From: Phaeotremella fagi
Taxonomy: Eukaryota > Basidiomycota > Tremellomycetes > Tremellales > Phaeotremellaceae
NCBI GenBank assembly: GCA_001599715.1
Contig: BCHU01000004.1
Location: forward strand, 1,302,001 to 1,366,000
Length of the DNA: 64,000 nucleotides
Direction of reading: 5' to 3'
Shown: piece by piece, positions 48,819 to 63,764 of the stretch
How the letters are laid out: each line of letters starts with the position of its first letter
Position numbering within the stretch: the stretch's first letter is position 1
Made by a program: the position numbers and the translations under genes
Notes under the pieces: generated by a model
Database searches by the model: none
What the model was told of the DNA's origin: nothing
The model's input: only the letters and a program-made list of their open reading frames with translations

Positions 48819-51176
48819 TCACGATGTCGAACCAGAATTGGAGTTGAAATTCATTACAGATTTCTCGAAACCCAATCCGTCGAATTGTTGATTAATCTGA
48901 TAATCAGAAGATTGATTTTGACGATTAAATCCACCATGAGCGTTATCGTTTGGATGTCCATTCCCATTCCCATTCCCATTGGTGTTGGTACTCCAATAAG
49001 AAGGTGGTTGTTCACCATAAACCAAACCTTCGTATCCGTCATGAACACTGCCGTTGACTATCGATTCACCGTCTACACTTTCTGAACCTTCTTCCTTAGC
49101 CCTCTTGGCTTTAGCTTTCCTACCTGGTCTACCTTCATCTGGTATACCAGATTGTACCGTCCACCAACCACCTTTACCACCAGTGTCATCAGGTACACCA
49201 TCGATTTTATTAACTCTAACAAACATTTTCCTGGAACACAACAAAGTAAGTCTCAAGTTTCAAAACATCAAATCTTGTTTCACTCACTTTAGACTCAAAT
49301 TATGTCTAATAGAATTCTGCCATCCAGCAGTTTTCTTTTCATCCAAAGTCTTGAAGAACGGGAATCTATTCGCGATACTTGAATAAATCTGGGCCAATTG
49401 TAATTTATTGTCCGGAGCGCATTCTATGGCATAACGAATCATTTCATGATAAGGATGAGGCGGTTTACAATCCACACCTGGATTTTCACCGTTGGTAGGT
49501 AACTCGTTATGATTAGTTTTACGTGGTTGAGTAGGTTGTTGAGGTTGAGATTGTGATTGAGATTGAGATTGAGATTGTGAAACACCAGGAATCATTGGTG
49601 AAGTGAAAGAACCTGAACCGGAGGCTGAAGATGTTGGTGCAGCTCTATGACCGGGTAACCAAGGACTTTGTGAGATGTGAGGTATAGATGTTGACGCAGC
49701 GTCTTCTTCAGATATCGGTAAAGATGTGTTGGATTCGTCATCAACCGCCACGAGCATGTCATCGATATCTTCTTGAACCTGAGGTAAATATCTAACAGGT
49801 GACAAGGTAGCTCTGGAATATCTAGGATTCATGATTTCCCTAGCGTTAACAGCACCACCAATAGTTCTACGTCTTTTATGAGCGGATCTGCCAAGTACAG
49901 AACCGATTGGACTGCCTTCAACAGCTTCAGCTGCTGCAAGTAAATCATGAAGTTTATCAGGTGTTGAGGCCCGTCTCCTTTCTGGACTGGCTGAACGTCT
50001 TCGTTTCCTATGATCAAACGAATCACAGATCTGAGCTAAAGCGTACGAAGGCGCTGTAGCTTCAGGTAAAGGTCTTGGTTTACCCATAGGAGTTTTCTCA
50101 GTCGCAGCGACGATTTCTGCGAATTCGTCAAGAACCGATCGAGCTGGTGTACCGGGGAGTAAACGTCTGGATGAAGATATGGGAGAAACGAGAGTTGATT
50201 GAGGTGGACTTCTGGAAGTTGATTGTATAGGGTTCGAACGTGGGAAATCATCTTCTGAATCTTTTCCGTGCCAGACCAAACCTCTTATCATCGGTGGTTC
50301 AAGGGATGTTGAACTTGGATAATCCCAATGTGATCTTGGGAAAGCTACCGTGACAGCCCTAGATAATTCTTCTGATTCCGGAACCCGAGGGAATCGTTCG
50401 AGGAGCAAACGACGGACAGCGATGAGTGACATTGTAGGTGTCACTACACTGTGAGGCTGAGGGAGGTGATGGAAGTTTGTTCGTAGCCTTTGGATATCAA
50501 TAAATTGACCACAATTTTTATATGACTAAACTCACCAAGAGATCAGATCAACACTCGCACCATTTCTCAAAACCATCTTAGCCTCGAACGGAGGAGCCAG
50601 AGCGGTTTGTTGTCGTTGTCTTTCCCTTTCTCTAGCAATAGGCAGATCATCATCATCATCATTATCGACGTCTTCCTCATCGAATAACTTTCTTTCAATC
50701 TTAGAAGCGTCACTAGCTAAACCACGTTCTGATCTACCATACTCGGATCTACTGTATTCACCAGGTCGATAAGGTGAATAAGGAGTATGTTGATTTGAAA
50801 GGTAACGTGAAGAAGAATGATCAAAGGAAGGTGGGAAACGAGTTGAATAGGAAGTGGATGGTGAACCGTTAGATGGTGAGAGTGAAACTGGTGTTGGTAG
50901 TGTTCTACTGATTTTTTTAGGTGAAGGACGATGAGGTGAGAGCTGATTGAGGTGTTAAAGAGATATCTTAAAAAAGTATGTATTCAATTAACTTACCCGA
51001 CCGGATTCTCTAGCTTTACCTCGTTCGTCTCTGAACCAATTTCTAACACTTGTATTAGACCAACCAAGTTGTCTACCGAATTCAGCTTGTTTCTCCGGTG
51101 AAGGGAATTGATCTTTCTCGAAAACCTGTCGTAAAACCGTTGATGCGTCAACGGATGAATTTTTGAAGGATGGCAT
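48819..51176 (-). CDS. Homeodomain plus forkhead transcription factor
   Basis: Nuclear regulator with two different DNA-binding domains. Exon 1 encodes an N-terminal homeodomain: [28 protein letters not shown], then [17 protein letters not shown]. Trp48, Phe49 and Arg53 are kept, but the near-invariant Asn51 is Asp. Intron 1 (GTAAGT...TCAG) leads to [20 protein letters not shown] and an acidic stretch ([14 protein letters not shown]). A 48-nt intron near 50526-50573 completes a Trp codon and continues in frame to [15 protein letters not shown]. The forkhead domain is [20 protein letters not shown], then [20 protein letters not shown], then [19 protein letters not shown] and GKGGWWTV. The tail is Asn/Gly-rich. 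In-frame junctions at each intron support a single gene, though a cDNA is needed to exclude two. Confidence 0.82.
48960..48986. repeat. CCCATT hexamer microsatellite in coding sequence
   Basis: Four to five copies of a CCCATT hexamer encode an alternating Asn-Gly run near the C-terminus of the homeodomain-forkhead protein. Length variation here would stay in frame. Confidence 0.6.
49549..49580. repeat. TTGAGA hexamer microsatellite (Ser-Gln run)
   Basis: Five or so near-identical hexamers encode alternating Ser-Gln residues between the central region and the forkhead domain. In-frame and likely length-variable between strains. Confidence 0.6.
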
Positions 51177-52299: not shown

Positions 52300-54647
52300 C
52301 TAAGTCCCATCAAAAGTAACCCCAACATCCCCCCAAGCGTTATTGACAATCAACCCATTNCCCCNCCCCTCCGAGCCACTCTGAACTTCCATCGGTGACT
52401 CAAACTCATCCGACCAATAACAAGCTCCCGTCAGAACACTGAAAGAGTTGTTCGACTGACTAGCGTTGAACCCGTTACTCGAATAAAACGGATCTGAGAA
52501 ATCAATAGGTCCAACAGAGATTTGTCGTAATCGATCCCAACCCTGTGGATCCTGTGAACTTGAGATTTTAGGAGTCGGTAAGCGAACTTGACCCCAGAAA
52601 TTCCTTATTGCAAATGGTCCAATGTAATTTGGATGCATTGAGATATCGACGGCTCCTTGACCGTTGGTTATTTCAGCTACTAGGGCAGTGTTGGGTGATT
52701 GGTGGAGATACGATATCGTTACTGGTCCATCAGAATTCATGAACGTCGTCATCACTTCGTGTCCTGGTATGAGAGGTGTTGATCCAGCATTTAACGTGTA
52801 AACTCGCTTCAGAATCGTGTTGTCGTTGGCGGTCCTGGCACGTAATGACTTGGATAGTGATCTTCCAGGGAAGAGAGATGGTGTGGGAAGTGAAGTAGAA
52901 TTATCTGTACTGGTCGGGTCGAACAATATTAAATCGGAAATAATAGCTCCACTGTACAGATATCAATACCAGTCTTTCCTAAAACTAAAAAGAACCTACT
53001 TTGAAGTGTTCAAACTCAATCCATCACTAACATTGAATAAACCTCTTATCGACCCGTCATTAGTAGCCACACTGATATTGGCAGCAGCAAGGTAACCAAC
53101 ATTGACACCACCATGATTCATGTTAATAGAGTAGTTACCGAAATCAACCACTTTTTTCATATCACCGAAACGAATTGACATGTGGTCGGCAGCAATCGAT
53201 AACGCAGGTACATAATTTGGTGGAGGTGGTAGACGAACCACGATATGTAGCGTTGGCAATTGATTTGGATCGAGTAAACTGGGATTTGAAATTTTACTGT
53301 CGGTTTGTATGGGAGTCTAAAAGGGTGTGATCGATGAGCATGGCCCACGTAGATTGTTGCTTAACTTACATAAATGCCAACTCCAACTTGATCTTTTCGG
53401 ACCATTTCACAAACACGCATTAAAGAATTGATATCTTGGTCACCACTATATCTGATGACAACGTCAACCTGAACACCATTCGTACTCGTCGTCAGATCTG
53501 TTGGACCGTCTGAACCGATAAACTCAAGTGTTCCGGTGGAACCTAAACCCCTTGACACGAAATATAATCCTTCTGTAGAATTGAGATCCAGGTTGAACGT
53601 AGCCAATGTAAGACTGTTCGATGGATACGGGACAGATAAAACGTTGAAAGGTGAGGTTGAACTGTTGAGTGATGTGAACTGATTGCAGATTGTCATGTTT
53701 CCGTCTGTTTTACTTGGTCCGTCCTATGGAGTGTCAGTCGGGAACGAAGCCAGATCACGTCCTGTAACTCACCCTTGAAGCCACATATGTAAGATTAGTA
53801 TCAACCGGCTAAAAGTGGATGTTAACAACAACAACACAGTAAGTACACTGTTACTTACAGTCCACTGCATAATCTTTCTACCGTTCTGACCCTGATCATC
53901 CCAGGAGGTAGTAGTCTGATTACTTTTAATGAAACCAGCCTTAAACCCTAAGAGCAATCCAACAACCAATCCAATCCCAATGAGCAACAAGGCCACCGTA
54001 GCCTGAATCCATCTTTTATATCTTCGTATAAATTTCTTAACTTTCGTCGGTAAAGGGATATCACTTAACGACGGGATAACGTTGTATATAGGTAAACCAA
54101 AAAACCGTGAACTTTCCTTGTTGTTTGATTTTTTAGATTTATTGGAATTAGTCTCCCATAATTTTGACGTTGATCCGTGAACAGGTGGAGAAGAATTATT
54201 TTGTAAAGTCGTCGAGGGACTTAACATCGGTTCTGATGAATTGAGATTAAGATTGAGATTGTTGGTATTAACATTTGAAAACGGTAAAAAACCGTTGCCA
54301 GTTGGTGTAAGAGATTGACTAGAAGAGGTAGGTGAAGGATGAGAATTAGATCGAAGGGGTAAAGCAGGGATGGTGATTTGCGGAGGAAATCGATTTTGAG
54401 ATTCGAATCTATCATCGAAAACGTCGAGACTCAACGAAGGTTGACTGGAAGATCCTGACCATCTTTGTCTCGACAGACGACCTTCATACGGTGGTAACTG
54501 TTCACCACGCCATTCATCGTGTATATATCCAAATCCTGATGTGTTTCTTCGATGAGCTTCAGGTGGATGTTGGAGATCTAACGATAACGTTGATTCGGAT
54601 GACGCGTAGATGTTTGGATCCTTTTCTGGATCTGGTGGAATGATCAT
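52300..54647 (-). CDS. Type II membrane protein of unknown function
   Basis: A disordered, Ser/Asn/Pro-rich cytosolic N-terminus of about 200 residues leads to a basic patch (KVKKFIRRYKRW) and one membrane helix at residues 213-235 (IQATVALLLIGIGLVVGLLL G). The large C-terminal region is Asn/Ser/Thr-rich with many NxS/T sites and beta-strand-like sequence: LYFVSRGLGSTGTLEFIGSD, then VQVDVVIRYSGDQD, then FGNYSINMNHGGVNVGYLAA. The positive-inside rule puts it in the lumen or outside the cell. This layout is common in conserved basidiomycete proteins of unknown role at the cell surface; I cannot assign a function. Introns are near 52950-52995, 53317-53370, 53723-53775 and 53812-53860. Two undetermined bases (52360, 52365) fall in codons near the C-terminus. 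Confidence 0.78.
52360..52365. other. Undetermined bases within coding sequence
   Basis: N at 52360 and N at 52365 in a C-rich tract. They leave two residues unresolved in the lumenal tail of the membrane protein; the frame is not otherwise disturbed. Confidence 0.95.
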
Positions 54648-55611: not shown

Positions 55612-56738
55612 ATGAGAATCATCACCGTTACCCAACTTTTCGTTGCGATGGTTTCAATAGGAATCGCTAGAGCATGTTGGTATTCGGTATATCTTGAGAA
55701 TCCTAACGATTTCTATCAGAGATTTCAAGCCTGTAACGTAAGTTTCCTTATTTCAGATTATCATTTTTTTACCATCAACTGATAATCGTGTCCATACAGT
55801 GTGAAGGTGTGGGATACGGAAAAGGGAACTATGCTCAATGCTGTACTCCCCTCATTGTCCCCTCTGGCCAACATAGCGCTGCCACACCATCGGTCTGTTA
55901 TCAAGTAGCCCAATCAGTTGGTGCGACGTCCATCAATTCTTGGATTCCAACTACTGCCCCACCCACTACTACCACCCCACCCCCAACTAACTATCCAACC
56001 GGTACACCCTCCTCACCCGCTTCACCCACTACACCTCCACCGACATCTTGTGACGCCACATCCTGGGTAACCACCACAACAACAACTTCATGTACCACAA
56101 CCCCAACTTGCGTCACCACCACCATCACACCATGTCAATGTCAAACCTCCTCCGCAAACGCTATCTCAACCACCACCCCGTGGCAAGGTGATATCCCTCC
56201 ATCAAACTATGCAGGCGGTTACAAACGAGGTGAAAATTGCGTTTGCGAGACGACATCATCAGCCAACGCTGTTTCAACCACTTCTCCATGTTCGACTACT
56301 ACCCCTTGGCAAGGTGATATCCCCCCAACAGGCTATACAGGTGGTTATAAACGTGAGACGATCCCTACTATCCGTGCTGGTAAATTCAACAACAGAAAAC
56401 TTCCTCCTCCAGGCTACGACCATTCTTATAAACGTGAATTTGGTTTTGGTCATATCCCAAGAAACGCTCCGACAACTTGTATCTCTACTACTACAGTCGC
56501 TACAGATAATTGTACACCGACATCAACGCCTTGTACGGTTACAGTCACTGCTACACCCACCACACCTAATACACCTACTACATCGAGTGCGGCGGCTGTA
56601 TCGACAGAAACGCAAGACTGTAGTGAGGCTTCAAGTGCTAATGCCGTGTCTACTGGTACACCTTGGCAAGGTGATATTCCACATTCAGGGTATACAGGTG
56701 GATACAAACGTGCTGAAGAGACTCCGAGGGTCGAGTGA
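55612..56738 (+). CDS. Secreted Thr-rich protein with KR-terminated repeats (candidate kexin-processed peptide precursor)
   Basis: A 354-residue secreted protein in two exons (55612-55737 and 55800-56738; 62-nt intron). Residues 1-21 (MRIITVTQLFVAMVSIGIARA) are a signal peptide. A short Cys-containing region follows (CWYSVYLENP, CNCEGVGYGKGNYAQCC, VCYQVAQSV), then a Thr/Pro-rich, probably O-mannosylated stretch. The C-terminal half holds repeated units that end in the dibasic Kex2 cleavage pair: TPWQGDIPPSNYAGGYKR, TPWQGDIPPTGYTGGYKR, LPPPGYDHSYKR and TPWQGDIPHSGYTGGYKR. The three near-identical units are preceded by SSANA(I/V)ST. Kexin-processed repeat proteins are known in fungi; that this is one is inferred from the KR pattern. 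No CaaX box, so it is not a farnesylated basidiomycete pheromone. A structural cell-wall protein is the main alternative. Confidence 0.75.
56137..56711 (+). repeat. Imperfect repeats encoding KR-terminated peptide units
   Basis: Units ending at 56228, 56354, 56434 (shorter, diverged) and 56711. The first, second and fourth share about 17 of 18 residues before KR, but differ at many third codon positions, showing that the peptide rather than the DNA is conserved. Confidence 0.75.
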
Positions 56739-56876: not shown

Positions 56877-58111
56877 ATGCAACCATTAAAACGTAAACTA
56901 CAACCATGGGCAACAGCGTCAACATCCACACCTTCATCCCCATCACCCGGTATGATAGGTAGTCCAAACGTGAAATCTGAACCGATGGATCCAGATCAAA
57001 AAAGATTCAAGCCAAGTAGTAAGTCGTGAGATCACAGATCACTCAGAGTGCTTAATCTTCCTCTTCGTCAGATTTAAGTAATCTATCTGTTACGGGTAGT
57101 CATGGGATGTTCAGAGATTATCGTACAGCAGCGAATGAGCTGTATTTTCAATTGAAGGTTGGTTGGATAGTTCTTTAAGTGTCTGTTGTTTATGATTGTT
57201 GACGTGAGAATAGAAAACTATGACTCTGGCCAGATTAGAAGCTTATGTTCGTGTTCAAGAGAGTAGTCCTGAGTTAAATGCTGAAGAGGTGTTGAATCAA
57301 TTGAAGAAATTGGAGAGAGTCACTTATAACGAAATAAATGAAGTTTTCGAATACAAGGTAAATAATTCTCGTCAATCCAAAAGAGTATCCTATCTAACCT
57401 CGCTTTCAAGCCTGAGGTAGTTCTAACAACTGAACCCCAACTTCGAACCTTCATACGAACCAACTCAACACCCTCCAAAGGCGTCTCAATGAAATCCATT
57501 CGAGAAGCTATGCCGACCTGTGGGAATTTCCTAGAAACGTTAGAAGAGAAAGGTGATATCCTGATTATGAGGGGTTTACAACATAATCTATTCAAAGATT
57601 TACCTTTACCGAAACTTGGTCGTAAGAATTTTAATGGTGTGGGGATAATGGAGGGTGGGGTTGGGAGGTTTAAGAACGTTTTCTGGGATGAGATTAGGGA
57701 GAGGGGGAGAGGTGGTAAAAAGGTTGATGAGGGTAGGTCTGTTTATCTTTCCGTTCAGATCAATTTTTAACACGAACGGTTAGAATTCATTTTCATGTGG
57801 GCAGACGTTCCAATAGCGGAAACAGACGATATCACGAAACTCCTTGCTGAACGTAAGTCTCGAACTCGAATTTATCGACTGACATCGTCGAAGAGGATCT
57901 GGGAGCATCGTCGGCTGTCCCACTTGCACCCAAAGTCGCACCATCGGGACCGATCAAGAAGAAAAAATCTTCAAAGAGGGCAATGAAAGTTACCAACACA
58001 CATATGAAAGCTTTCGTGAGTTTTGTTTATTTTATTGCGGTGTGTTGGATTGGTTAAACTGACGGTTTGCAGGGAATCGATTTTTCGAAAGACTACGAAC
58101 GTCCTTCATAG
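56877..58111 (+). CDS. TFA2: TFIIE beta subunit
   Basis: General transcription factor that helps load TFIIH at RNA polymerase II promoters. The N-terminus is basic and Ser/Pro-rich. The winged-helix core is seen in LARLEAYVRVQESSPELNAE EVLNQLKKLERV, then YNEINEVFEYKPEVVLTTEP QLRTF, then IREAMPTCGNFLETLEEKGD ILIMRG. The C-terminal basic helix region is KKKKSSKRAMKVTNTHMKAL GIDFSKDYERPS, which is diagnostic of TFIIE-beta. The ATG at 56877 starts MQPLKRKLQPW. Introns are near 57020, 57158, 57358, 57733, 57853 and 58016. Confidence 0.92.
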
Positions 58112-58307: not shown

Positions 58308-60689
58308 TCAATTTTCACCTCTCACAAAAAAGTCATCATAAACCTCATAGGGGTACGCCTTATCCTTCTCTACTCCATCAAACCAATCTACATTGTGTTC
58401 ATCAACCGAACTTTCTTCTGACCAAGAATCCCCATCCCCATCTATCTCAACAAACTCTGAAACTGCTTTTTTGGCTAGCTGAGATTCACTGTCCCTCTCA
58501 TCAAGTTTTGAAATCTCATCCAAGGTTAATCGATCTCTATGATGATTTTTGAAAACATTCATATAATCCTTGAGTTCATCATCGCACGGCTCATTACTGA
58601 CCGTTGGTAGTTTAGTGAGCTCAACACCAGTCTTGAAATGGCCACCAAAACGACTGGTCAATCCAGCATAATGATCAATTGGTCCCAGCCAGTGTTCAGG
58701 ATGGTCTATCCCCCAAAACATCTGTCTCCATTGATGCATTGTCCTGTCTTTCCGTTTATCATCTGTAGACTCAATATTCTCTTGTTCTTGCTTCTTATTC
58801 GGATAAAACCTTTTTGTCTTGCGCTCAGCCAACTCCCACTCACTACTGTCGATCTCGTTCTCCTTACACCACTCAAGGAAATCTTGCTCGTTGTCAAATT
58901 TCCTTGTTTCAAGATCTAGCATTCTGAGCATTTCGCTCCTCTTTTTGTTGAATTCCGTTTCTGTTTCTTGTTCATTTGTGATTGCTGTTTCTTGGATACT
59001 CGGGGAGCCAAGTGCGTGATCTGGTGAATGGATTGATTTCCCTTTATCTCCCTTCATGCTTTTGGCTTTTTTTTCATCTTGATCGGCTGATATGACCATT
59101 GCTACACGTTCTGAAACCCACTCTTGGATTGAGTTTGATTGTCGAGTTGTCTGTGTCTTGAGTGAATTGTATCTATCAAGATGCTCTTGATAAGTCTGTC
59201 GATTCATTTTGAGCAAATTTTCAGCCTCAGCCTGATTGTGAACAATCATTACCGAGGCTTCACTCATGATGACTCTAGCTCTGTACAACCTCATTGAAGA
59301 TGACAGGGATAACATCTCCAGCTCAATCTTATCCTCTGGGGTAAGATTGTAGCCTGTCATTTTGATGAACTTATCTACCTTTGACACTCCGACCGATTCC
59401 TCGTACTTGAATTTATTCGTCATTTCTTCCGCAATTGATCTCCCAGCATCCATCAAAAGTGATTTTCGATACCCGCAGATTGTATTGTTCAAAACGCAGA
59501 AATCTTCATATGTCGTAATCCTTGCACGGAAATAATCTGTTTTTGTCTTCTGAAGCTGGTCTTCTTCATCCTTGACAATTTTATTGGCTTGTTTGAAATA
59601 CCACCATGCAAGTTCTGTTGCAACATTATCAGGATGAACAGATTTCCAGTCTCTAGATTTCCAACAAGCCTCGATAGAATACCTCCCCCTCCAAAAGCTT
59701 CTCTTCATGCTATCAAAACGCGGTAAACACTCTGAAACGTCATCAGTAAATTTCCATAATTTCTCTAGTTGACTGGAATCCATCATTCCATAAGGTATGT
59801 TTCTTAGCTCCCCTAGTTCGTCAGGCTTTAGACCCTCCGGAGCTTCTTTCATCAATTCTAAAAACTGATTCCAACTCAGATCATGTGGTATGGTTGGATC
59901 AATTTCATTATCAATCAATATCTTGCCTTCTGATTCTGGTTCTTCTTCCCATTTACATCCTACAAACATTGATGCAAAAATTTCTTCTTCCGTGAGACTC
60001 CTTTCGTATCGGCATAACTGTGCTCCTTCAATAAACATATCTCGAACAGATCTCATTTCAGAATCAAGATCCGCTTGATATTGTTCAAACCATGATTGTT
60101 GTCTCAAAGAGACATTTTGGAATTTATCGATTATTTGACGTCTACTATAATTCTGGGTTGCTATTGACATGCACAAGACTTGGTATGATACCTGGCTTAA
60201 ATCTCCAATTTGCGAGAGATATCTTTGTTGATTTGCTATAGCTTCTTCCAAAGCAACTTCCTTCTTTGATTCTACAATGAGCTGTTTTCTAGCTAGTTTC
60301 ATCCCTTTCTTGTCAGACTTGTCATTTTTCTGAATTGTGAGTTTTTTGATAGCCTTCTTGACACCAGTGTAGTCTTCCCAATTTGAATTCAAAGACTCTC
60401 TGATTTCTCGAGACACTTTCAGGAATTGATCGAAAATATCTTTACCTTTTTCAGTGGTTTTGTGCATGGGTTCGTTGTCGTCAACATCCCAAAAATGTCG
60501 TTGCCCAACTGAACAAGGGCTTGTAAAAGGTTGATTATTTACCATTTCAAGCCCTTTGGGCTTTTTCTCTAATGTACCATAAGGGTGTTGTCGGGATTTG
60601 AAGGTTGCTCTGGTTTCGAAAGTACCGGTTGCGGTTGATATAACGGTGAGGGCGGTCGTAAATTTGAGTTCAGTGTTGATGGTCTCCAT
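58308..60689 (-). CDS. Family D unknown protein 1 (793 residues)
   Basis: Single-exon large soluble protein I do not recognise. The first 45 residues look beta-rich (TELKFTTALTVISTATGTFE TRATF), followed by long charged helices typical of coiled coils (KAIKKLTIQKNDKSDKKGMK, then LIVESKKEVALEEAIANQQ; DRYNSLKTQTTRQSN). The C-terminal part contains FWGIDHPEHWLGP, then TGVELTKLPTVSNEPCDDEL and an acidic end (EIDGDGDSWSEESSVDE). The C-terminal segment aligns loosely with the next gene (GGVQIEKYEDTISHPDGDVV) and with the partial gene at the right edge. No signal peptide or membrane helix. Two long exon-only neighbours contrast with the intron-rich genes of the rest of the window. Confidence 0.72.
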   Translation of the reverse strand: METINTELKFTTALTVISTATGTFETRATFKSRQHPYGTLEKKPKGLEMVNNQPFTSPCSVGQRHFWDVDDNEPMHKTTEKGKDIFDQFLKVSREIRESLNSNWEDYTGVKKAIKKLTIQKNDKSDKKGMKLARKQLIVESKKEVALEEAIANQQRYLSQIGDLSQVSYQVLCMSIATQNYSRRQIIDKFQNVSLRQQSWFEQYQADLDSEMRSVRDMFIEGAQLCRYERSLTEEEIFASMFVGCKWEEEPESEGKILIDNEIDPTIPHDLSWNQFLELMKEAPEGLKPDELGELRNIPYGMMDSSQLEKLWKFTDDVSECLPRFDSMKRSFWRGRYSIEACWKSRDWKSVHPDNVATELAWWYFKQANKIVKDEEDQLQKTKTDYFRARITTYEDFCVLNNTICGYRKSLLMDAGRSIAEEMTNKFKYEESVGVSKVDKFIKMTGYNLTPEDKIELEMLSLSSSMRLYRARVIMSEASVMIVHNQAEAENLLKMNRQTYQEHLDRYNSLKTQTTRQSNSIQEWVSERVAMVISADQDEKKAKSMKGDKGKSIHSPDHALGSPSIQETAITNEQETETEFNKKRSEMLRMLDLETRKFDNEQDFLEWCKENEIDSSEWELAERKTKRFYPNKKQEQENIESTDDKRKDRTMHQWRQMFWGIDHPEHWLGPIDHYAGLTSRFGGHFKTGVELTKLPTVSNEPCDDELKDYMNVFKNHHRDRLTLDEISKLDERDSESQLAKKAVSEFVEIDGDGDSWSEESSVDEHNVDWFDGVEKDKAYPYEVYDDFFVRGEN

Positions 60690-61224: not shown

Positions 61225-63432
61225 CTATACTGAATCACTCTCATCTTCAGCATCATCTTCCGCATACAATATGGGCTTCCCCTTTCTCAGCTTCCAAATG
61301 TCATTCCTTCGTCTCAGGTCTCTAACAACATCACCATCTGGATGACTGATTGTATCTTCGTACTTTTCGATTTGAACACCACCGATTTTAGATTTTGCCA
61401 AGATCTGAGAGGCTATTGACGCTCTTGAGTTTTCTTGTGAGTTAAAAGTATCCTCCTCTTCTTCGTTCTCAGCTGAACGGTTAGAGGAACCCCATAATTC
61501 TTCCGCAGTTTTCATTCGATATTGTTTACGCGGATGGTTCTTGGCGGACGAAGTCTTTCTGTGATCGCTTTGTTGGCTTCGAGCTACCGATCTTTCCATG
61601 ACCTTCTGCCATTCTTGGTTGATGATACCTTTTTTACGATTCCATTCGTCGATTTCTTTTTCCGTCTGGAGAGTGCTAAAAGGATGGTCATATGTAGACT
61701 TCCTTGTCTCCGTGTGATCGGTGTTATTATCGGAGCGGAATGATTTTCTATGAACTTTACCAGAACGCTTCTTGGAGGGTTCCTGAACTTCTTTCTTTTG
61801 CTGCGCCTCTTCTTCCTCTAATGCTGTGATTAAATCTTCATCTTCGAAGCCTGAACATTCATTTACTGTTGACGAAGCTATCCAAGAAGCTTTCCAATCA
61901 GCAAAAACCCTAGGGTATTGTTTTACTTGTTTCTCGTAGTGATTAAATCTTCTTGTACTGATTCTGAGCTCTTTCTTACTTTTCTCTATCAGAGTATCTA
62001 AGAACACCTTGTCTCCAAATTTTGGAATTTGCACAGTAGCTTCTAAATTCTTAAGGATTGCAGCGTCATCATTGACTCGAGACTTGGCAATGAGCGCCTT
62101 CAGGTAAATCTTATCCGTTTCTCCAATTCTTTCGGAGGATTTAAGCTCGACCAAATTTGCGATCTCGTCTGATTCGCTCTCTCCCGGGCTGTTTCCAATG
62201 GCGTTGAATATTTTCACTCCTATACTATCAAGGTAGGCTCCTTTCTCTTTGATCAAGGGATTTTCGTTCGAGCCATCGTAGACGGACTTGATGTCGAAGG
62301 GCAGGATCGTTTGGAGGCTCCAAAATGTCTTTTTTTCGGCGTTTGAATACTCTTTTGACAATTTTCTAGCCTCAGACTCGAACCAATCAACCAATTTGCT
62401 TGAAGTTGTCTCTACCGTGTCCAGGGAAACCATTCTCTTGATGTCTAGCGAAATTGATTTCAGATGTCTATCATAACTTTTGTCTAAATGATTCTTGAAT
62501 TTTTTCAATTGATTTTTCTCGAATTGTTCGGTTTCATTATTCTCATTGAGTAAAGAGCTTTGACCAAACGACTGTTTTGAACTCTCACCAATCACCATTC
62601 CTTGAAATTCGTTGAATGTCAGATCTTTGGTAAACCTCTTGTCTTTGACCCTTTGAAACTTTGCATTTGAGCTTTCCCTACATTTCACCACCTTCTCCTT
62701 GAGTACCTCCGCAAATTTTTTATAATCATCAGCATGAGATTCGTCGAACTCTAAGGCTGCGGCAGCATGGGATTGAACCGTAAAAATCGAGTTCTCTTGA
62801 GAGAGGAGTTTAGCCTCATAAGCCTCCAACCAAACCCTTTCGGACGAAGTTATCACTTTGCCGAGATTTCCTCTGATATTTTCTTGTTTCTCAATACTCT
62901 CGGTGAATGTATTACAACATTCTTCAAAAAAAATTGCGAACCGACGGAGATAAGTAACAAGATTTATTGAAGTGTGTTTGAGGGGATCCTCTTTAGAGAT
63001 AAGAGGATTTAATTCGTATTTGGCTTTCTTGGTTTGCTTTTTCATCGTAGGGTCGTTCAAGCTACATATTTTTCTTAGAATTTTAAGACGGCGAGACAAA
63101 GTGTTGTATTCTTGACAAGTACTATCTGTGAGCGGACGAATTGCAACAACATGATCGTGCAGAGCTTGGAAGACTCGGTAAGGTAGAGAGCTGTCTTGTT
63201 CCATGGTGAAGCTACCGTTGACATCCCAAGTGGTTGAGTTTTTATCCGTCGGTAAAGATACGCCTGAACCTGAAGTGTATAAGACTTCCAAGCCAACAGG
63301 TACAGAAGACTGGTGTGGAAAGGTTGTCTGTACTTGTAGTTCGCCATTGTCACTTGATGTGATCGAAAATTGGACATCAAATTGGACTGTAGGATTCTCG
63401 TTGCCGGGGTAGAGGTTATTAAGAGTACTCAT
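61225..63432 (-). CDS. Family D unknown protein 2 (735 residues)
   Basis: Single-exon large soluble protein of unknown function. It has a beta-rich start (VQFDVQFSITSSDNGELQVQ TTF), a Trp-Asp-Val motif (TTWDVNG; copy 1 has HFWDVDD at the equivalent place), then long charged helices (YNTLSRRLKILRKICSLND; KELRISTRRFNHYEKQVKQY). Its basic C-terminal third contains EELWGSSNRSAENEEEEDT and IGGVQIEKYEDTISHPDGDV VRDLRRRNDIWKL, and an acidic end (DDAEDESDSV). The position of the WG motif, the GGV-type strand and the following D-V-V helix match the partial gene to the right. The shared layout supports an array of three related genes; overall similarity to copy 1 is low. Confidence 0.72.
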   Translation of the reverse strand: MSTLNNLYPGNENPTVQFDVQFSITSSDNGELQVQTTFPHQSSVPVGLEVLYTSGSGVSLPTDKNSTTWDVNGSFTMEQDSSLPYRVFQALHDHVVAIRPLTDSTCQEYNTLSRRLKILRKICSLNDPTMKKQTKKAKYELNPLISKEDPLKHTSINLVTYLRRFAIFFEECCNTFTESIEKQENIRGNLGKVITSSERVWLEAYEAKLLSQENSIFTVQSHAAAALEFDESHADDYKKFAEVLKEKVVKCRESSNAKFQRVKDKRFTKDLTFNEFQGMVIGESSKQSFGQSSLLNENNETEQFEKNQLKKFKNHLDKSYDRHLKSISLDIKRMVSLDTVETTSSKLVDWFESEARKLSKEYSNAEKKTFWSLQTILPFDIKSVYDGSNENPLIKEKGAYLDSIGVKIFNAIGNSPGESESDEIANLVELKSSERIGETDKIYLKALIAKSRVNDDAAILKNLEATVQIPKFGDKVFLDTLIEKSKKELRISTRRFNHYEKQVKQYPRVFADWKASWIASSTVNECSGFEDEDLITALEEEEAQQKKEVQEPSKKRSGKVHRKSFRSDNNTDHTETRKSTYDHPFSTLQTEKEIDEWNRKKGIINQEWQKVMERSVARSQQSDHRKTSSAKNHPRKQYRMKTAEELWGSSNRSAENEEEEDTFNSQENSRASIASQILAKSKIGGVQIEKYEDTISHPDGDVVRDLRRRNDIWKLRKGKPILYAEDDAEDESDSV

Positions 63433-63764
63433 CTTAAGCAGAAAGAGTTAAAAAGAAATTGAAGTACAATATTTGTATCAGACTTCTTTAAATGCACTTA
63501 TTCACTCCCGCTGAAAACCCCGCTCGCTCGAAGAGAGCTGATTTTACAAAAAGGAGAGTGGACACCCGCCTGTTGCCACGACTGCTCATGTTCAACAACC
63601 GCAAAGAGAAGAAGAGGTGAAACATCAACGGGAGAGCAGGCCACGTAGCACAGGAAGGCAAGCAAAAGAAACGCCCATTGAGACCCACAGTCTGTATGCA
63701 TTTACTTTTTTCGAACATTTACTTTAAACACATTGAATGACTATTGTACAGTACTGCATGTCCT
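63433..63764. other. Intergenic between family D copies 2 and 3
   Basis: About 330 bp, leader of copy 2 and 3' UTR of copy 3. Open frames on the minus strand (63488-63718) overlap in two frames and show no feature. Confidence 0.35.

What the first reader, a model, noticed from the sequence alone, without database searches (positions are those of the whole stretch)
55612..56738. Candidate kexin-processed secreted peptide precursor
Signal peptide, Thr/Pro-rich spacer and repeated units ending GGYKR or SYKR, three of them almost identical (TPWQGDIPPTGYTGGYKR). Synonymous changes between units show selection on the peptide. Cleavage after KR would release several near-identical 16-18 residue peptides. 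Such proteins in other fungi serve as signals, repellent-like surface peptides or toxins. No CaaX motif, so it differs from the known lipid-modified pheromones of basidiomycetes.
Basis: partly seen in the sequence, partly recalled or inferred. Interest (0 to 1): 0.75.

Follow-up and report, generated by a model that had tools for sequence, protein, structure and literature searches.

The report
Fungal secreted peptide precursor, kexin sites
A fungal gene encodes a secreted, cysteine- and threonine-rich protein carrying repeated tails that each end in a likely protease cut site; it resembles known fungal peptide precursors, but its cut pieces would be longer and less uniform than first thought.

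Summary
Gene and repeats are real. Spliced (intron 55738-55799), it encodes 354 residues: signal-like N-terminus, six-Cys part, Thr/Pro-rich spacer, and four dispersed units ending YKR. Three share TPWQGDIP and GGYKR plus an upstream SSANA[IV]ST; the fourth is degenerate (LPPPGYDHSYKR). Repeats and KR sites exceed shuffles, synonymous change between units exceeds amino-acid change, and 1 of 392 ORFs in 264 kb (this one) has three or more similar dibasic-ended units. A kexin gene lies in the genome; 4 of 4 KR sites have an acid at P1' or P2'.

One claim fails: no KR precedes any 18-residue unit, so kexin would not release 16-18-residue peptides but pieces of 162, 40, 25, 90 and 8 residues, three sharing a tail.

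Best reading: a secreted precursor clipped by kexin into tail-sharing pieces, working like Ustilago Rep1 or other KEPs, most likely at the cell surface. It passes an emulated version of one published KEP rule (a loose one) and fails another. No homologue or paralogue was found, but the collections searched seem to lack fungal relatives, so orphan status and KR conservation in orthologues are untested. Moderate interest.

The parts
55612..55737 (+). Exon 1, residues 1-42: signal peptide and start of the Cys part
   Evidence: Translation, GT at 55738; unspliced frame stops at 55780
55612..55674 (+). Signal peptide, residues 1-21 (by eye: Arg-2, hydrophobic residues 3-19 with mean hydropathy 2.15, ARA|C)
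   Evidence: no signal-peptide program was available
55738..55799 (+). Intron, 62 nt, GTAAGT...CAG
   Evidence: exon 2 has no Met codon and its frame is closed upstream by a stop at 55734-55736
55800..56738 (+). Exon 2, residues 43-354 and stop
55675..55898 (+). N-terminal part with six Cys (residues 22, 41, 43, 56, 57, 75), interrupted by the intron; no Pfam match, no credible PDB match
55941..56168 (+). Ser/Thr/Pro-rich spacer, residues 90-165, 68% S+T+P, likely O-glycosylated (inference)
56148..56228 (+). Unit 1, residues 159-185: SSANAISTTTPWQGDIPPSNYAGGYKR; KR at 56223-56228
56256..56354 (+). Unit 2, residues 195-227: SSANAVSTTSPCSTTTPWQGDIPPTGYTGGYKR, six more residues in its linker than units 1 and 4; KR at 56349-56354
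56400..56435 (+). Unit 3, degenerate, residues 243-254: LPPPGYDHSYKR; KR at 56430-56435; preceded by RK at residues 241-242
   Evidence: (4-5 of the 16 residues before KR identical to the other three)
56631..56711 (+). Unit 4, residues 320-346: SSANAVSTGTPWQGDIPHSGYTGGYKR; KR at 56706-56711
56712..56738 (+). C-terminal tail AEETPRVE and stop; hydrophilic, so no GPI or membrane segment is seen; no CaaX

Best explanation
The gene encodes a secreted precursor that enters the secretory pathway, is probably O-glycosylated on its Thr-rich stretches, and is cut by kexin after four YKR sites; the KR is then trimmed by a Kex1-type carboxypeptidase. The products are an N-terminal Cys/Thr-rich piece (162 residues) and pieces of 40, 25, 90 and 8 residues; the 162, 40 and 90 ones end in nearly the same tail (TPWQGDIPPTGYTGGY in the 40-residue one), and the 25 one in a related tail. 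The conserved tail is the part under selection. Most likely the tail-sharing pieces act outside the cell at the wall or surface, in the manner of Ustilago Rep1, rather than as small uniform hormones. Shown: open frame and repeats, constraint on them, KR enrichment, kexin gene. Inferred: splicing, secretion, glycosylation, cleavage, trimming and surface role.
For: Signal-like N-terminus and no other membrane stretch (maximum 19-residue hydropathy 0.67 after residue 25). 4 KR against 0.19 expected, 0 of 20000 shuffles. Synonymous above amino-acid change between units, p 8e-4, 6e-7, 2e-6 for three pairs that are not independent. 4 of 4 KR sites have an acid at P1' or P2'; 10 of 100000 random draws do as well; acidic or small residues are over-represented at P1', P2' and P4' of cut kexin substrates (PMC2515848, passages). 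Kexin in the same genome: P-domain matches over the cut-off, subtilase-like motifs and a membrane tail read by eye in the frames (motifs recalled). 1 of 392 stop-to-stop ORFs of 100 residues or more in the window plus 200 kb has three or more similar dibasic-ended units (6 or more of 12 residues alike): this one; 3 others have two.
Against: P4 is Gly, Gly, Ser, Gly; kexin favours aliphatic P4 (PMC8528282, passages). P1' is Gly and Ala at sites 1 and 4; in yeast Pir4 a change from KR/D to KR/A stopped processing, and conserved KR sites of some Pry proteins stay uncut (PMC2515848, passages). Units are dispersed, not compact as in documented KEPs (PMC6339444, section 24). 11, 3 and 4 Cys in three of the five pieces could keep pieces linked. 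No expression or proteomic data. The surface role rests on analogy only.
Confidence: 0.5

Rival explanations
1. An uncut (or only partly cut) structural secreted or wall glycoprotein: a Cys-rich head on a Thr-rich stalk with repeated tails that bind something; KR is an incidental or structural end of the repeat.
For: Thr/Pro-rich stalk, 18 Cys, dispersed units; unfavoured P4 residues; examples of uncut KR and of a KR/A change that stopped processing.
Against: KR kept in 4 of 4 units, including the degenerate one where only 4-5 of 16 preceding residues match; acid at P1' or P2' at 4 of 4. No hydrophobic C-terminus such as a GPI signal would need.
Confidence: 0.28
2. A precursor of a diffusible signal such as an alpha-type pheromone or quorum peptide.
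For: YKR followed by E at two sites looks like alpha-factor precursors (recalled); kexin present.
Against: No XA/XP dipeptide after KR (GE, ET, EF, AE), the mark that PMC6339444 uses for STE13 trimming (section 24; passages). Pieces are unequal and mostly long. The 8 STE3 receptor matches lie on contigs C3 and C12, not C4, which bears only on linkage to a receptor gene.
Confidence: 0.1
3. A precursor of a toxin, antimicrobial or cyclised (ustiloxin-like) peptide.
For: Tyr in the tails; kexin-cut cyclic peptides exist in other fungi (PMC7329392, passages).
Against: No UstYa/DUF3328 match in the genome, though that search rang in no control and so does not show absence; three of the five pieces are 40 residues or longer, and two of these are 90 or longer.
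Confidence: 0.07
4. A gene that is not expressed or is decaying.
For: No expression data; no homologue found.
Against: Exon 2 is open for 312 codons before its stop, and the units differ mostly by synonymous changes.
Confidence: 0.05

Closest known systems
KEX2-processed repeat proteins (KEPs), PMC6339444 and PMC7329392
   Same: Signal-like N-terminus, at least three related units in one protein that end at KR.
   Different: Units lie scattered among Thr-rich linkers instead of in a compact cluster; pieces are unequal and share only their C-terminal tail; the first piece exceeds the 100-residue limit of PMC7329392.
Rep1 repellent precursor of Ustilago maydis
   Same: Secreted repeat precursor with kexin sites; reported peptides of 35-53 residues plus one of 228 (PMC4617103, passages), so long and unequal pieces have a precedent.
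   Different: Rep1 is described with 12 mostly tandem amphipathic repeats; here four dispersed, Thr-rich units with Cys between them. No sequence comparison with Rep1 was made.
Pir-type and other kexin-cut wall proteins
   Same: Kexin site in a secreted wall protein (Pir as a kexin substrate: PMC2515848, passages).
   Different: No Pfam match at E 10 or better, so no PIR repeat was recognised; four sites along the chain rather than one N-terminal pro-site (the latter recalled).
Lipid-modified (CaaX) basidiomycete pheromones
   Same: Small secreted peptides as the end product (recalled).
   Different: No CaaX end; precursor of 354 residues with a signal-like N-terminus.

Membership tests
KEP as in PMC6339444 (section 24) | Signal peptide and no membrane segment | tested here: inconclusive
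   Hydropathy and ARA|C by eye; SignalP and TMHMM were not available
KEP as in PMC6339444 (section 24) | At least four fragments after KR/RR cuts, at least three of them alike, covering 15% or more | tested here: met
   My emulation of the FIMO step: 5 fragments, pattern of 3 (40, 90, 162 residues), coverage 0.36; the 25-residue fragment did not join (p 5e-4 to 5e-3 against a 1e-4 limit). The rule is loose for this composition: 36 of 200 shuffles with KR fixed also pass; the p values of the match (6e-15, 6e-14) were not compared with those of shuffles
KEP as in PMC6339444 (section 24) | Repeats compact in one region (described there as typical) | tested here: not met
   The three DNA copies start 126 and 357 nt apart, with linkers
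KEP as in PMC7329392 (section 13; passages) | At least three tandem repeats of 8 residues or more between kexin sites, none over 100 residues | tested here: not met
   First piece is 164 residues with KR, as I read the rule; the tandem-repeat scoring itself was not rerun
Kexin substrate | KR at P2-P1, favourable P1'-P2', aliphatic P4 | tested here: inconclusive
   KR 4 of 4, acid at P1' or P2' 4 of 4, aliphatic P4 0 of 4
Kexin substrate | Cut in the cell by kexin | not testable with these tools
   Needs peptidomics
Rep1 repellent | Sequence relationship to Rep1; amphipathic peptides on hyphae | not tested
   Rep1 sequence was not fetched; resemblance is in layout only
Alpha-type pheromone precursor | XA/XP dipeptides after KR (STE13 signature) | tested here: not met
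   GE, ET, EF, AE follow KR
Ustiloxin-type RiPP precursor | UstYa/DUF3328 gene nearby | tested here: inconclusive
   0 matches in the genome, but nothing rang in the 14 controls
Basidiomycete CaaX pheromone | C-terminal CaaX | tested here: not met
   Ends AEETPRVE

The most novel reading that the evidence does not exclude
A kind of kexin precursor in which one protein makes a Cys-rich glycosylated head and several mucin-like pieces that end in nearly the same exposed tail (PWQGDIPP, then TGYTGGY or a close variant), held together or apart by disulfides: a tail-display system for the cell surface rather than a supply of identical peptides.
Probability: 0.2. Interest if true: 0.6.

Novelty: new variant of a known kind. 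Interest (0 to 1): 0.38.

Why it matters
KEP-derived peptides are widespread in fungi but their functions are largely unknown (PMC9769878, abstract in listing), and KEPs are reported as scarce in yeast-like groups such as Tremellomycetes (average 1.00 per strain; PMC7329392, passages). If the fungus belongs there (not established), a dispersed, tail-sharing precursor of this kind would be missed by a rule that limits pieces to 100 residues, so such counts could be too low. No second copy was found in the genome, which would make the function directly testable by deletion.

Tried and rejected
Homologues: three searches of the large protein database gave none: whole protein, 7993 candidates, E limit 1; residues 165-262, 106 candidates, E limit 10; residues 1-92, 3 candidates, E limit 10. 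In one search the candidates may have been crowded by Thr-rich proteins (inference). The database did not list the protein of this very window, so it probably lacks this fungus and its relatives; the misses say little about orphan status. Pfam at E 10: 0 families. PDB with residues 1-110: one match at E 3.5, taken as chance. Viral contigs with the exon 2 protein: none. Paralogues in the own genome: for the whole protein one match outside this gene, E 0.089, on C8, taken as low complexity without further study; none outside this gene for the unit or the N-terminal part; the DNA pattern TGGCARGGNGAYATHCC occurs 3 times, all in this gene. The tool calls its counts lower bounds.

Mating-type link: 8 STE3 matches lie on C3 and C12, the window on C4; rejected. 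Identification of the fungus: 5.8S rRNA 0 matches; Mating_N 0, and it rang nowhere; Pheromone one match at E 0.52, below its cut-off. I first read only the forward frames of that locus; one search shows that the match is a Ser-rich frame on the minus strand opposite a 392-residue frame, without a CaaX end, so I take it as chance. A scan of 8 STE3 loci for short CaaX ORFs gave one 65-residue frame, seen in two overlapping loci and not examined further, against 3 frames in the 20 control loci. No genus is claimed.

Structure prediction was not run: the Cys part is split by the intron, the spliced protein is not given letter for letter by the window, and a single low-complexity sequence tends to give a poor model.

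Literature: of four unit strings (WQGDIPP, TGGYKR, GGYKR, GYTGGY) only GGYKR occurs, in 1 paper of the library, a lysine-methyltransferase study, seen as a listing. Other searches, seen as listings. So 'not in print' holds only for those searches in that open-licence library; supplements were not searched.

Full report
WHAT IS THERE. The finding's start and stop are right, but the gene needs an intron (55738-55799, 62 nt, GTAAGT...CAG). Exon 1 read unspliced stops at 55780; exon 2's frame is closed upstream by a stop at 55734-55736 and has no Met codon, so the two must be joined. The product has 354 residues: a signal-like N-terminus ending ARA|C, six Cys in residues 22-75, a 68% Ser/Thr/Pro stretch at 90-165, then four units ending in YKR, with KR at 184-185, 226-227, 253-254 and 345-346, and a hydrophilic tail AEETPRVE.

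THE REPEATS. Three units share an 18-residue block around TPWQGDIP and GGYKR (15, 15 and 16 of 18 residues identical in the three pairs) and, upstream, SSANA[IV]ST; the second has six extra residues between the two blocks. The fourth, LPPPGYDHSYKR, agrees with the others at only 4-5 of the 16 residues before KR. The best internal ungapped match in residues 156-354 scores 128; 300 shuffles reached at most 60. KR occurs 4 times with 0.19 expected; 0 of 20000 shuffles had 4 or more. Among 392 stop-to-stop ORFs of 100 or more residues (both strands, unspliced) in the window and 20 further 10-kb stretches of the same contig, this is the only one with three or more similar dibasic-ended units (3 others have two) and the only one with two or more YKR.

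SELECTION. Between units, synonymous differences exceed amino-acid differences: 18-codon unit, pS 0.38, 0.61, 0.50 against pN 0.10, 0.13, 0.06 (Fisher p 0.028, 0.0009, 0.0016); 26 codons with the SSANA block, pS 0.44, 0.78, 0.66 against pN 0.09, 0.15, 0.08 (p 8e-4, 6e-7, 2e-6). Of the 31 differences summed over the pairs of the 18-codon unit, 21 are at third positions. The three pairs are not independent and the unit is short.

No KR, RR or KK stands before any of the three units within its piece. KR cuts give pieces of 164, 42, 27, 92 and 8 residues, or 162, 40, 25, 90 and 8 after removal of KR. Three of them share a C-terminal tail; none is a 16-18-residue peptide. A second protease, or cuts at single Arg as suggested for some agaricomycete KEPs expressed in Pichia (PMC9769878, passages), would be needed. 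The pieces hold 11, 3, 0, 4 and 0 Cys, so some may remain linked by disulfides (inference).

IS KEXIN LIKELY TO CUT? The genome encodes a kexin on C5: P-domain matches at 60.6 and 25.4 bits, over the cut-off of 21, with subtilase-like motifs and a membrane tail readable by eye in the frames (motifs recalled). At the four sites P1'-P2' are GE, ET, EF, AE: an acid at 4 of 4, where 10 of 100000 random draws give that. Acidic or small residues are over-represented at P1', P2' and P4' of cut substrates (PMC2515848, passages). Against: P4 is G, G, S, G, not aliphatic as favoured (PMC8528282, passages); in yeast Pir4 a change from KR/D to KR/A stopped processing, and conserved KR sites of some Pry proteins are not cut.

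IS IT A KEP? By the rule of PMC6339444 (section 24 read), my emulation is met, with a pattern of three fragments and 36% coverage; the 25-residue fragment does not join, and 36 of 200 shuffles with KR fixed also pass, probably because the protein is so rich in Thr, so passing means little on its own. That paper also describes documented KEPs as having repeats compacted in one region, which is not so here. By PMC7329392 (section 13 read; passages) it fails as I read the rule, because the first piece is over 100 residues. So it works like a KEP, and whether it is filed as one depends on the definition. Rep1 itself gives pieces of 35-53 and 228 residues (PMC4617103, passages), so long pieces are no bar.

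WHAT IT PROBABLY DOES. I favour tail-sharing pieces that act at the wall or surface: Thr-rich, probably glycosylated chains with a conserved end rich in Tyr, Gly and Pro. This is an inference by analogy. A pheromone is less likely: there is no STE13 signature, and the STE3 matches are on other contigs. A ustiloxin-like cyclic peptide has no support, though the UstYa search had no positive control.

LIMITS. No paralogue was found in the genome (lower bounds by the tool's own note). The taxon was not established. No expression, structure or protein data exist here.

Noticed in passing
L012-L019 (G000:C3:584238-591226 and C12:638055-639007): Several STE3-like pheromone receptor matches lie within 7 kb on C3, with one more receptor on C12; some frames hold stops, perhaps introns.
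   Followed up: partly
window 49287-50525, minus strand: ORF with a forkhead domain, likely a transcription factor (Pfam E 2.7e-18).
   Followed up: no
window 56877-58111 (about, by eye), plus strand: The next gene downstream, starting 138 bases after the stop, looks like TFIIE beta (weak Pfam matches in two ORFs, E 0.007 and 0.00028, both below cut-off).
   Followed up: no
window 53769-54647, minus strand: Divergent neighbour: a protein with a basic stretch followed by a hydrophobic segment, perhaps a single-pass membrane protein (by eye; no Pfam match over cut-off).
   Followed up: no
window 58308-60689 and 61225-63447, minus strand: Two long ORFs (793 and 740 residues) without any Pfam match at E 0.1 or better.
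   Followed up: no
G000, whole assembly: 5.8S rRNA gave no match in the 24 contigs (786 candidates seen, 39 scored); the rDNA may be missing from the assembly or withheld.
   Followed up: no
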